Shown here: piece after piece, positions 23,383-27,229 of the stretch
Position numbering within the stretch: the stretch's first letter is position 1
How the letters are laid out: every line of letters starts with the position of its first letter
Assembly (NCBI GenBank): GCA_963921825.1
Contig: OY997596.1
Coordinates: 4,097,001 to 4,161,000 of the forward strand
Length of the DNA stretch: 64,000 nucleotides
Reading direction: 5' to 3'
DNA from: Erodium maritimum
Lineage: Eukaryota; Streptophyta; Magnoliopsida; Geraniales; Geraniaceae
Notes under the pieces: generated by a model
Told to the model about the DNA's origin: nothing
Databases searched by the model: none
Seen by the model: the letters and a program-made list of their open reading frames with translations, nothing else
Translations under genes and position numbers: made by a program

Positions 23383-23703
23383 TGTTACGAGCATATTTTG
23401 ATGAGTTATCAATATTGGGCTACAAATTAGTTGGGCTTTAATCTATCCGAGTGGGCTTTGTTAAGTGGGCTACTCAAGCCTTGTTAGTTAAAATTAGTTG
23501 ATGTACTTCTTTATTTGTCCCTTGTATACAAAAGGAAGAGGATGAATGAAAGTAGCAGGTTTTACCTCATTTGACAAAATATTACTCTCTCTACTCCTTC
23601 TCCTTCTCTCTCTACTCCTTCTCCTTCTTCTTCTCTTCTCCTTTCATATACAGGAACCCTAAATTCTATCAATTTTCTCATACTCTTCATTTAGAGTGTA
23701 TCA
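23383..23703 (+). repeat. 5' LTR of the gene-capturing element
   Basis: Starts TGTTACGAGC and ends AGTGTATCA. Contains CT-rich tracts (23585-23640). Same length as the 3' LTR. Confidence 0.9.
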
Positions 23704-23734
23704 TTGGTATCAGAGCCTCTTTCTAGGCAATCTG

Positions 23735-24175
23735 ATGGCTGAAATTTTTTTTCCTTCAACTTTAAATATGGAGCTTCATGGCATCAATGAATCACTTGTT
23801 GGTGTTAGGGTTCATATGGATAAAGTTGTTGACATGCTAAAGGGCTTGCTTTCAAGATTACCAGACCCACCGAGTAAGTTATATGTAGCACCTTCATCCT
23901 CTTTGGTCTCTGCTGCAAGTTTGGGTGACGACCCAGTTAGAAAATCAGAGATCGTTCTTGTTGATTCTAAGTCTGGGAGTGAAGTTGCAACTCAAGAAGT
24001 GACTGAATTCGACCAAGTCTTTAAAGGGGTTTCAGATTATTGTCCGATTCTATTATGGGTAATGCATATTTCTGGTGCCTCCAAGGTGTTCGATGAAATG
24101 CCAACATCACAAGTGGTGAACCATATTAAGGTATGCCCAGTACCATTCGAATTACAGTCTCTAGTTACACCTTAG
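23735..24175 (+). CDS. First ORF of the gene-capturing element (unknown)
   Basis: 146 codons from the first ATG after the PBS. The N-terminal half (MAEIFFPSTLNMELHG) is not a recognisable gag. Near the C-terminus the stretch GASKVFDEMP resembles a pentatricopeptide-repeat helix, which could be another captured host fragment, but the match is short. It overlaps the start of the long ORF by about 40 bp in another frame. Confidence 0.45.
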   Translation: MAEIFFPSTLNMELHGINESLVGVRVHMDKVVDMLKGLLSRLPDPPSKLYVAPSSSLVSAASLGDDPVRKSEIVLVDSKSGSEVATQEVTEFDQVFKGVSDYCPILLWVMHISGASKVFDEMPTSQVVNHIKVCPVPFELQSLVTP

Positions 24176-26844
24176 ATGGTCTTGGAATGGTTATTTGGCC
24201 TACTGGAGTTGGCACATCTCTCATTCTTGGACATGAAATTTTTTTAGATGTACAAAGTTCTCTTTCTAATACTTACTATGATGTTGTGGACTCAATGTCA
24301 GTAAATTCTGTTGTGGTTCCATGGGAACAACTATATTTTGGTGCAAAACTTTTCAATAGGTTTGTAGTGGCATCAGTGACAGTTGAAGCAGTGGCTGTTA
24401 TTCATGGGTTTTCTTGTAAGGTTACGGTGGGTGTTGGCATAAAGCAACTAATTACATTTAGAAACGAAGATTTTGAATGGGTACATGATATGAAGATTGA
24501 TGAAGATGTACTAGTGATGGCCTGGGATTTGATGGGTAGTGTGGGAATGAATAGTTCAGTTTACACCCATTTTGGAGTGCATCAGGCTGGAATGAGTCTA
24601 TACATTTTGCTATATGGGGTTCCTCTACTTTGGGTAGATACTGAACGAGGTGTTTCTCCATCAATCTTGAGGGGAGTAATTGATTTCAAAAGGAAACCTT
24701 GGCCTCAATTTATAAAGAGTGCTAAAAGCCTTATTCAAAAAATGTTGGATCCTGATCCCAAGAAGCGTCTGACTGCTCAACAAGTGCTTGAACATCCATG
24801 GTTACAAAATGAAAACAAAGCTCCATATGTCCCACTAAGAGATATTGCGAGGACCAGGCTTAAGCACTTCTCTATTTTGAACAGATTTAAAAAGAGAGCT
24901 CTATGTGTAATTGTTCAACACTTGTCTATTGAAGAGGTAGAAGTGATTACAGACATGTTTGTTTTGATGAACACGGATAATGATGGGAAAATAACATTTT
25001 GGGAATTAAGAGTCGGACTTTGCAAGGTTGGTTCGCAACTAGCTGTTATTGAGATTAAAATGTTGATGGGAGTAGCTGATATTGATGGGAATGAAGTACT
25101 TGATTATTGGGAGTTTGTAGCAGTGACTATTCACTTGCAGAAGATGGAGAATGATGACCACTTCCGCAGAGCATTTGTATTTTTTGACAAAAGTGGGAGC
25201 AGAATTATTGAGTTGGATGAGCTACAACAAGCCTTAGCTGATGAATTGAGTGTAACTGACAGTGATGAGCTCAAAGACATCATGTGTGGGGTCGACATTG
25301 ACAGGGATAAGCAAATCAGTTATGAGGAGTTGGTGGCTATGATGAAAGCTAATACATGTTTTGGCTTGGTTGAGGTATGCCAACTCCCATTCATTTCCTA
25401 TTCGCTGATTCTAGCTTCACAGTCTACTGAATTTGAAATAAGTCCTATTGCTATTGATTATATATTATGCTTCTATCAAGAAATGAGTTATAGAAACACT
25501 CGTGGGCTAAGTGGTGATTTAGATGATAAAGTAATGAATGATGATATGTGGCCGTCACCCCTTCAAAATGCTGAAAATTTTGAGTATGTTCTTTTGAGTA
25601 TGGTTGGGAAAGGGAATTTGTTTAAGAGGACCCATGATTGCAAGACTTCAACTCTGATACTATTTCATATGGGTACAAATGAGTTATTATCCTTACACGT
25701 TGATTTATATGATCGGGTTGCACAAATCTCGGAGAGTAGATTCTATGCTCGGATTGGAATTAAATATGTTTTTAAGAATTATGATGTTGTTTGCGGTAGC
25801 CATAAAGCGGGCAGTGAGGAATTTTTTTCCATGGGAAATTCAATCCTGATAGTCATATTTATCACTTATATTGGTGGAGTTCTTTCCTCTAAGGAATTAG
25901 TGCAAGGATGGTTCGGTTTTTGGTTAACCAAAGGAATCATATTTCCAACCCTCACACATAATTCTCTGTTGCAATTTATGTTAAAATTATGGACAGCAAG
26001 TACATCAATACATGGTCAGGGGATGGACAACACAAGGCCTCGGCAAATTCAAGGCCACCAATGCTATTACAGTTCTGAGAGACACCTTAAAGATTATAAT
26101 CTTCAACTCCAAACCACAGTAGAGGATGGGTTTTCTGGAATAAAGAACTGGACTTCAAGATTAAGTCGTGCATTGGAGCAGAAGATGGTTGATTGGATAT
26201 GGGAGATAGAGAATGTGAATGTATCTGGGTCCATGGGTTCTGAAGAATTGCAGTCATTGGGCTTTCCCATTATCATGTACCCTGGCTCCTTATCACGTTG
26301 GGTCATTGCTTCACACCAATTCCAACTTATTGTGAGTGTATCTAATTGTTTGGCAACTCAGGTTACCATGAAAAGAGAGGTTGAGAAGCAGCTTGTTCAC
26401 ATGAAGTCCCTGGATACAATTGGCCAAAGAACTTCACATTATGGAGGTATCACAGAGAATAGATGGGCTGGTAAAGCTCATTTTTGGGACAATAGTTGCA
26501 AGAAAGAAGGCAAAATCAAGAAAGGGAGACAAGTTTATCTGGAAGGTTATGATATGGAAGGGAAAGCTGCAAGAGCTTATGATCTCGCTGCATTCAGGTA
26601 TTGGGGGCCTCCAACCCATATCAATTTTTCATTGAAAAATTATGAGCTAGAACTAGAGGAAATGAAGAATATGGAAGTTTCTGAAACACAATATGTTGTG
26701 GATTTGATCGAGCGTACACTCACTGCTCTTATTCTGAGGGTGTTGTATGTTCTGAAACAAGAACATGAGATGTTGTGTAGGGGTGAAAATGGGAAACCAA
26801 ACATCAGATTCGTGATTTATGAGGTGTTTAATTGTACTAATTAG
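24133..26844 (+). CDS. 903-codon fusion ORF: CDPK kinase end + EF-hands ... AP2 domain
   Basis: Single open frame. Residues about 151-407 correspond to a plant calcium-dependent protein kinase from the SLYILLYG segment through the C-lobe (DPDPKKRLTAQQVLEHPW), the autoinhibitory junction (HFSILNRFKKRAL) and four EF-hands. The ATP-binding lobe, HRDLK and DFG motifs are absent, so it cannot be a kinase. The EF loops are worn: position-6 glycine is replaced in loops 2-4 (Glu, Arg, Lys) and the first Asp of loop 1 is Asn. Residues about 767-848 are an AP2 domain of the AINTEGUMENTA/PLETHORA type (WDNSCKKEG insert, GRQVYLEGYD, AARAYDLAA, YWGP). The 360 residues between, and the N-terminal 150, are unrecognised and may be other captured pieces. 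Whether it is translated is unknown. Confidence 0.85.
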   Translation: MPSTIRITVSSYTLDGLGMVIWPTGVGTSLILGHEIFLDVQSSLSNTYYDVVDSMSVNSVVVPWEQLYFGAKLFNRFVVASVTVEAVAVIHGFSCKVTVGVGIKQLITFRNEDFEWVHDMKIDEDVLVMAWDLMGSVGMNSSVYTHFGVHQAGMSLYILLYGVPLLWVDTERGVSPSILRGVIDFKRKPWPQFIKSAKSLIQKMLDPDPKKRLTAQQVLEHPWLQNENKAPYVPLRDIARTRLKHFSILNRFKKRALCVIVQHLSIEEVEVITDMFVLMNTDNDGKITFWELRVGLCKVGSQLAVIEIKMLMGVADIDGNEVLDYWEFVAVTIHLQKMENDDHFRRAFVFFDKSGSRIIELDELQQALADELSVTDSDELKDIMCGVDIDRDKQISYEELVAMMKANTCFGLVEVCQLPFISYSLILASQSTEFEISPIAIDYILCFYQEMSYRNTRGLSGDLDDKVMNDDMWPSPLQNAENFEYVLLSMVGKGNLFKRTHDCKTSTLILFHMGTNELLSLHVDLYDRVAQISESRFYARIGIKYVFKNYDVVCGSHKAGSEEFFSMGNSILIVIFITYIGGVLSSKELVQGWFGFWLTKGIIFPTLTHNSLLQFMLKLWTASTSIHGQGMDNTRPRQIQGHQCYYSSERHLKDYNLQLQTTVEDGFSGIKNWTSRLSRALEQKMVDWIWEIENVNVSGSMGSEELQSLGFPIIMYPGSLSRWVIASHQFQLIVSVSNCLATQVTMKREVEKQLVHMKSLDTIGQRTSHYGGITENRWAGKAHFWDNSCKKEGKIKKGRQVYLEGYDMEGKAARAYDLAAFRYWGPPTHINFSLKNYELELEEMKNMEVSETQYVVDLIERTLTALILRVLYVLKQEHEMLCRGENGKPNIRFVIYEVFNCTN

Positions 26845-26908
26845 TTCTCCGTCTTCAAAGAACTGAATCAGATTCTTGAGGACAAGAATCATTTGAAGGA
26901 GAGGGTAA

Positions 26909-27229
26909 TGTAACGAGCATATTTTGATGAGTTATCAATATTGGGCTACAAATTAGTTGGGCTTTAATCTATCCGAGTGGGCTTTGTTAAGTAGGCTACT
27001 CAAGCCTTGTTAGTTAAAATTAGTTGATGTACTTCTTTATTTGTCCCTTGTATACAAAAGGAAGAGGATGAATGAAAGTAGCAGGTTTTACCTCATTTGA
27101 CAAAATATTACTCTCTCTACTTCTTCTCCTTCTCTCTCTACTCCTTCTCCTTCTTCTTCTCTTCTCCTTTCATATACAGGAACCCTAAATTCTATCAATT
27201 TTCTCATACTCTTCATTTAGAGTGTATCC
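26909..27229 (+). repeat. 3' LTR of the gene-capturing element
   Basis: Starts TGTAACGAGC and ends AGTGTATCC. Differs from the 5' LTR at only about four positions. Confidence 0.9.

What the first reader, a model, noticed from the sequence alone, without database searches (positions are those of the whole stretch)
23383..27229. Recent LTR retrotransposon that has captured CDPK and AP2 coding sequence
LTRs (321 bp each, about 1% different), PBS, PPT and a perfect GCACA duplication define the element. Its 903-codon ORF holds the C-terminal kinase lobe, junction and four EF-hands of a calcium-dependent kinase and, 360 codons later, an AINTEGUMENTA-type AP2 domain. Gene capture by LTR elements is known (maize Bs1 is the classic case), but two unrelated host regulators in one open frame is unusual and may be a mobile maker of chimeric proteins.
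Basis: partly seen in the sequence, partly recalled or inferred. Interest (0 to 1): 0.87.

Follow-up and report, generated by a model that had tools for sequence, protein, structure and literature searches.

The report
Retrotransposon family shuffling plant gene fragments
A plant jumping gene here carries spliced pieces of a calcium-dependent kinase gene and a developmental transcription-factor gene inside one long reading frame, and relatives of it in the same genome carry other gene pieces, so the family appears to shuffle host coding sequence as it moves.

Summary
Confirmed and extended. The element (23383-27229) has two 321-bp LTRs (4 differences), a GCACA duplication, an initiator-tRNA-Met-type primer site and a purine tract. 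Its 903-codon frame holds a CDPK piece and one AP2 repeat. Candidate donors lie in the same genome: a CDPK gene with five introns across the captured stretch and an AP2 gene with three, around a 9-base microexon. The element lacks all eight, so capture went through spliced RNA.

It is not a one-off. Twelve further two-LTR relatives share core and tail, but most differ in the middle: coatomer epsilon, chaperonin-60, beta-amylase and AGC-kinase pieces among others. Patchwork identity suggests template switching. In 8 of 12 members traced, the interior is one frame with at most one frame change. Stops are depleted, yet the captured CDPK evolved without protein constraint (68 nonsynonymous:16 synonymous; donor branch 2:12).

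Maize Bs1 and soybean GmaRetroS15 (three genes each) are precedents. New here: a family swapping multi-gene cargo while mostly keeping one end-to-end frame. No gag or pol was recognised in the ORFs scanned; no helper was found; expression is untested.

The parts
23378..23382 (.). 5' target-site duplication GCACA
23383..23703 (+). 5' LTR, 321 bp
23705..23717 (+). primer binding site TGGTATCAGAGCC (complement of plant initiator tRNA-Met 3' end; identity of the tRNA recalled)
   Evidence: 0 mismatches; exact in 9 of 11 elements examined, 1 mismatch in the other 2
23704..24568 (+). 5' core, parts of which are shared by the family; coding-like, no credible Pfam domain, contains a 19-residue PPR-like stretch; one frame change near 24.13-24.17 kb
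24133..26844 (+). 903-codon ORF
24569..25370 (+). captured CDPK segment (clear match 24577-25350): end of kinase domain, junction, four EF-hand-like loops, no introns; private to this element and its sister copy L031 in the comparison, which did not include L054; L054 keeps the first ~77 codons
25371..25980 (+). middle module shared in parts with L054, L038 and L037; origin unknown
25981..26731 (+). second private segment: about 150 codons of unidentified origin, then the AP2 piece
26425..26706 (+). captured first AP2 repeat (WRI1/AINTEGUMENTA-like), continuous across the donor's 9-base microexon
26732..26908 (+). 3' tail shared by the family, ending in the purine tract
26909..27229 (+). 3' LTR, 321 bp
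27230..27234 (.). 3' target-site duplication GCACA

Best explanation
A young non-autonomous LTR retrotransposon from a multi-member family that acquires fragments of spliced host mRNAs. Shown: LTR structure; intron-less sense cargo in this element matching intron-bearing genes of the same genome; different cargo in relatives; patchwork identity among members; near-continuous reading frame through the interior in most members; no protein-level constraint on the captured CDPK. Inferred: element RNA and host mRNAs meet in a particle or complex supplied in trans by an autonomous (probably Copia-type) helper; reverse transcriptase switches template between them and between family members; chimeras in which the frame stays open from 5' core to 3' tail are the ones that go on copying, because an early stop would harm the RNA (nonsense-mediated decay) or the frame's product. 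Amino-acid content drifts, so older cargo becomes unrecognisable.
For: LTRs/TSD/PBS/PPT. Thirteen two-LTR members including W. A readable 5-bp duplication in 9 of the 11 elements printed (W, L032-L037, L039, L040). Shared core and tail with different middle. CDPK candidate donor on contig 1 in six exon pieces over the captured 258 codons, i.e. five introns with GT..AG-type edges; W has none; the spliced donor protein is 88-90% identical to the 12 best-matching of 120 proteins held, so it looks like an ordinary CDPK gene (116). AP2 candidate donor on contig 6 with introns of 103, 71 and 74 bases around a 9-base microexon; W has none. L054 carries the start of the CDPK piece after the same upstream coding sequence as W, then other sequence, then W's middle module, in one frame with two stops. 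L040 is patchwork: L048-like start 92-98%, L035-like 86-93% over about 300-800, then L048-like 96-100% (63). Frame: W interior 1 frame change + 1 stop, L034 0 + 1, L036 0 + 3, against mean cost 45-49 for shuffles of these three (65). Core: 10 stops against about 80 expected. CDPK branch to W 68 nonsynonymous:16 synonymous, donor branch 2:12 (102); W vs L031 dN/dS 1.23 over the ORF (34).
Against: No helper found, but the LTR search scored only 40 of 80 candidates and the core search of the genome did not complete. In nine young elements 21 stops are seen where 12.8 are expected from decay since insertion, with 11 frame changes, 5 of them in L032, so not every copy was fully open when inserted; L033 (2 changes, 15 stops) and L038 (8, 45) are far from open. 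The zero stops on the W branch of the CDPK piece are only weakly significant (3.1 expected, p 0.044). The expectation of about 80 is inflated by alignment error, the frame path was chosen to minimise stops, and L033, L038 and several partial copies were left out. Core dN/dS is 0.48-1.03 in 27 of 28 pairs (1.70 for L031-W), from the 8 copies with an open core stretch only, so some amino-acid constraint is possible. Much of the private sequence is unidentified. Orientation was judged mainly from sense ORFs: only 10 of 69 antisense ORFs were scanned, one giving a weak hit. Intron loss was tested for W's two pieces only.
Confidence: 0.85

Rival explanations
1. Ordinary host chimeric gene that happens to lie between two LTRs, or a domesticated fusion protein kept by selection for its CDPK and AP2 activities.
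For: Long intact frame; recognisable domains.
Against: A sister copy lies at another site with 3 stop codons in the corresponding frame; dN/dS 1.23 between the two; CDPK branch 68:16 nonsynonymous:synonymous against a neutral ratio of 3.0; the kinase part lacks its catalytic region and the AP2 piece is one shortened repeat.
Confidence: 0.04
2. Capture at DNA level (as in Pack-MULEs or Helitrons) or by recombination, later acquiring LTRs.
For: DNA transposons in plants often carry gene pieces (review PMC13317346 and PMC2774510, passages).
Against: All eight introns of the two candidate donors are missing with continuous coding sequence; the identified pieces are in sense orientation (with the scanning limits stated); LTRs, PBS and 5-bp duplications.
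Confidence: 0.03
3. The frame is kept open because the translated fusion, or its N-terminal core as a Gag-like protein, is needed for the element's own packaging, rather than because of RNA surveillance.
For: Parts of the core are shared by the members examined and its dN/dS is 0.48-1.03 in 27 of 28 pairs; Bs1's hybrid frame includes a gag part (recalled).
Against: No gag, protease, reverse transcriptase or integrase match in the ORFs scanned with Pfam; no relative of the core found among proteins of similar length; a Gag function of the core would not explain openness through the cargo to the 3' end.
Confidence: 0.25

Closest known systems
Bs1 of maize
   Same: LTR element with pieces of three host genes (proton ATPase, xylan endohydrolase, beta-1,3-glucanase) and a chimeric gene reported as transcribed and translated; exons-only capture (PMC13317346 and PMC4717578, passages).
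   Different: Here different relatives carry different cargo, and patchwork among members is visible.
GmaRetroS15 TRIM of soybean
   Same: Miniature LTR element with pieces of three genes; the 346-bp casein-kinase-like piece spans exons 5-9 without introns (PMC4717578, passages).
   Different: TRIMs with gene pieces there are 1,172-1,449 bp; here 12 of 13 two-LTR members are longer than 3.5 kb (the thirteenth 2.3 kb).
Gene-fragment captures by LTR elements in maize, rice and sorghum surveys
   Same: LTR elements carrying host coding sequence (PMC2774510, PMC3726574, passages).
   Different: The maize survey saw 425 elements from at least 189 captures and, under its conditions, none with pieces of more than one standard nuclear gene; here the two-piece W and the three-piece candidate L034 belong to one family.
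Template-switch chimeras (Veju, BARE-2)
   Same: Recombined LTR elements attributed to template switching (PMC13317346, passages).
   Different: Here spliced host sequence as well as sister elements appear as sources.

Membership tests
LTR retrotransposon | paired LTRs, TG start and CA-type end | tested here: met
   W's 3' LTR ends CC instead of CA
LTR retrotransposon | 5-bp target-site duplication | tested here: met
   W, one of 9 readable among the 11 elements printed
LTR retrotransposon | primer binding site and polypurine tract | tested here: met
Autonomous Copia element | gag-pol polyprotein | tested here: not met
   no such Pfam domain in W or in the relatives' ORFs scanned
Bs1-like gene-transducing retroelement | pieces of several host genes, exons only, in one frame | tested here: met
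Bs1-like gene-transducing retroelement | gag-derived N-terminal part (recalled) | tested here: inconclusive
   core has no credible Pfam match (best E 0.075); only a 19-residue PPR-like stretch
TRIM | very short element | tested here: not met
   W is 3847 bp
Pack-MULE / Helitron | terminal inverted repeats or Helitron ends, introns often retained | tested here: not met
   LTR ends instead; 0 inverted repeats's settings (Helitron ends not searched); introns absent
Domesticated host fusion gene | protein-level purifying selection | tested here: not met

The most novel reading that the evidence does not exclude
A retrotransposon family that works as an exon-shuffling engine with a built-in filter: mRNA fragments are stitched in by template switching and only in-frame, end-to-end open chimeras propagate, with little regard to amino-acid content, so the family continually turns pieces of known genes into long, drifting, eventually unrecognisable new reading frames.
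Probability: 0.5. Interest if true: 0.85.

Novelty: new variant of a known kind. Interest (0 to 1): 0.7.

Why it matters
Gene capture by LTR elements is mostly described as single captures. A family with many cargo sets, candidate donors in the same genome and visible patchwork lets one ask directly how mRNAs enter reverse transcription, how often, and whether frame continuity is selected. It also offers a route by which long orphan-like reading frames arise from fragments of old genes.

Tried and rejected
Protein search of the stretch 409-770: 1944 candidates, none at E <= 1. Core alignment A1: 5175 candidates, none at E <= 0.01; the database does hold plants, but only proteins of about 140-440 residues are compared, so absence elsewhere is not shown. 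L036's 431-residue piece: no PDB match at E <= 0.001. Weak Pfam hits not relied on, because the antisense control gave 1 hit among 10 ORFs, a V-ATPase H match at E 0.0053 in L039 (the 10 longest of 69 antisense ORFs of 60 or more codons in W and nine relatives): NUP120 in L033 (0.0029), 2OG oxygenase in L035 (0.0064), Cpn60 by Pfam in L034 (0.0095; supported instead by PDB E 6.9e-24). Marked tentative: bZIP in L039 (0.0014), kinesin in L036 (7.6e-4), PMR5N in L034 (1.8e-4). ABC-transporter, HSP70 and other labels that I thought I saw in translations came from no search and are not claimed. An autonomous partner: none seen among the loci fetched; of L041-L047, five ORFs were scanned with Pfam (no pol or gag), the rest read as translations only. 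Structure prediction was not used: rows fetched from this genome are not on that tool's stated list. Papers were seen as passages only (PMC13317346, PMC3726574, PMC2774510, PMC4717578); the 2010 Bs1 paper is not held, and Bs1 is cited through the other papers.
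Full report
WHAT IS THERE. The window lies at G000:C9:4097001-4161000 of a 763-Mb, 40-contig genome. The search with the CDPK piece returns mostly named flowering-plant proteins among the 120 listed. The element runs 23383-27229: 321-bp LTRs differing at 4 positions (K2P 0.0126), GCACA duplication, primer site 13/13, purine tract. Its 903-codon ORF contains the end of a CDPK kinase domain, junction and four EF-hand-like loops (residues 149-406; EF-hand E 2.5e-14, Pkinase 3.8e-9; CDPK3 E 1.1e-68) and one AP2 repeat (Pfam E 3.6e-4, below its cut-off; WRI1 E 8e-26). 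No gag or pol domain was found in it.

THE FAMILY. The LTR finds 40 scored places (of 80 candidates) in the same genome. Twelve other copies with both LTRs were read: L031-L040 (pairs), L048 and L054. Parts only were seen in L041, L043, L044/L045, L046/L047 and L049. A 5-bp duplication can be read in 9 of the 11 elements printed; L031 is off by one base and L038's ends were not resolved. LTR divergences run from 0.006 (L032) to 0.10 (L038); L048 0.015. The members share parts of the first 950 or so bases after the 5' LTR and a short 3' tail; the middle mostly does not match. Interior without match to any other member (W and L031 not counted against each other; L038 and L054 not given a figure): W 49%, L031 50%, L033 62%, L034 62%, L035 55%, L036 37%, L037 64%, L039 60%, L048 23%, L032 14%, L040 5%.

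CARGO. Well supported: coatomer epsilon in L039 (E 1e-24), beta-amylase start (GH14) in L034 (1.5e-8), AGC-type kinase in L040 (9.8e-13) and L048 (PDB Greatwall 8e-11; the same capture, 96-98% identical in most windows), chaperonin-60 in L034 (PDB 6.9e-24). Moderate: kinesin in L037 (1.4e-5, below cut-off), Cdc23/ANAPC8 in L038 (4.3e-5, just under its cut-off), chaperonin-60 start in L044 (PDB 3.8e-6). Tentative: PMR5N in L034 (1.8e-4), kinesin in L036 (7.6e-4), bZIP in L039 (0.0014). These are on the element's sense strand, but mainly sense ORFs were scanned; of 10 antisense ORFs scanned (of 69), one had a weak hit at E 0.005, which shows what chance gives.

ROUTE OF CAPTURE. The CDPK piece best matches, outside its own family, a gene at C1:21.54 Mb in six exon pieces across 258 codons, i.e. 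five introns with GT..AG-type edges. Nucleotide identity is 0.859, against 0.807 for a paralogue on C5; W-C1 dS (0.26) is half of W-C5 (0.58) and C1-C5 (0.53), so the C1 lineage is the likely donor. The AP2 piece matches C6:54.637 Mb, where introns of 103, 71 and 74 bases surround a 9-base microexon (identity 194 of 249 bases); single exons of two other AP2 genes score as well or slightly better, so this donor is less certain. W is continuous across all eight. Intron loss with sense orientation means capture through spliced RNA. Donors of other members' cargo were not reached, because the search did not complete.

REARRANGEMENT. L054 (C5:40.25 Mb) has the first about 77 codons of the CDPK piece after the same upstream coding sequence as W, then about 280 codons of other sequence (no Pfam match in the ORF), then W's middle module (78% over element 1974-2425), in one frame with two stops. 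L040 matches L048 at 92-98% in the LTR and start, L035 at 86-93% over about 300-800, then L048 again at 96-100%. L032 changes its closest relative several times. This is what template switching between co-packaged RNAs would leave; recombination between integrated copies is not excluded.

FRAME. Tracing the cheapest reading path (stop 1, frame change 2) through each of 12 interiors gives frame changes + stops: W 1+1; L031 1+3; L034 0+1; L036 0+3; L039 1+1; L048 1+3; L035 1+4; L040 1+2; L037 2+5; L032 5+3; L033 2+15; L038 8+45 (older; 6.1 kb). Antisense costs are higher in all 12 (18-41, L038 70), and the mean cost of 30 shuffles each is 43-51 (22 for short L040, 83 for L038). For the nine elements with LTR divergence under 4%, 21 stops are seen where 12.8 are expected from neutral decay after insertion: more than decay alone predicts, yet far fewer than in shuffled sequence, so most were close to open when inserted. 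In the core, 10 stops against about 80 expected from parsimony changes over 13 sequences (L033, L038 and several partial copies left out); the expectation is inflated by misalignment and the path favours few stops, but an eight-fold gap is hard to remove. Core dN/dS lies between 0.48 and 1.03 in 27 of 28 pairs of the 8 copies with an open core stretch; the W-L031 pair gives 1.70.

NO CONSTRAINT ON THE PROTEIN. With C5 as outgroup, the branch to W has 68 nonsynonymous and 16 synonymous changes (neutral ratio 3.0), the donor branch 2 and 12; no stop arose on the W branch where 3.1 were expected (p 0.044). W and L031, at different sites with the same cargo, differ with dN/dS 1.23 over the ORF (CDPK part 2.45; AP2 part 8 nonsynonymous and 0 synonymous; small numbers); L031 has three stops in the corresponding frame. 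The chimera therefore moved after assembly, and there is no sign that its CDPK or AP2 activity has been kept by selection.

MECHANISM. Shown: structure, RNA-level capture for W, cargo variety, mosaicism, frame continuity in most members, relaxed sequence. Inferred: helper in trans, template switching in a particle, selection for an uninterrupted frame through RNA surveillance or a need for the fusion product. I favour the first reason because openness extends through cargo to the 3' end.

COMPARISON. The review PMC13317346 (passages) describes Bs1 with segments of three host genes and a transcribed and translated chimeric gene; PMC4717578 (passages) describes GmaRetroS15 with pieces of three soybean genes and calls Bs1 an exons-only capture. 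PMC2774510 (passages) found 425 maize LTR elements with gene fragments from at least 189 captures and none with more than one standard nuclear gene under its conditions. [quoted passage not shown] Paper searches for a family with shuffled multi-gene cargo in one frame listed nothing closer (listings only, open-licence papers only; searches listed none). Hence: a new variant of a known kind.

Noticed in passing
window 29446-32112 (+): Adjoining ORFs look by eye like a CC-NBS-LRR resistance gene; not searched.
   Followed up: no
window 3876-6441 (-) and 56307-60121 (-): ORFs that look by eye like Copia polyproteins, broken into pieces; possible suppliers of reverse transcriptase in trans, though no link to the element's LTR was tested.
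   Followed up: no
window 11369-17083 (-) and 43059-43688 (-): ORFs that look by eye like exons of subtilisin-like protease genes, apparently more than one copy.
   Followed up: no
L031 1914-4616: The sister copy's 5' LTR is split by about 2.6 kb of other sequence, so something probably inserted into it later.
   Followed up: partly
L046/L047 (C7:5807000-5818900) and L044/L045 (C2:61.20-61.21 Mb): Family LTR pieces 10 and 13 kb apart; could be nested insertions or larger relatives, and the gap in the C2 pair was not fetched.
   Followed up: partly
window 23704-24568 core: A PPR-like stretch of about 19 residues (PDB E 2.9e-4) lies in the family core, perhaps the trace of a much older capture.
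   Followed up: partly
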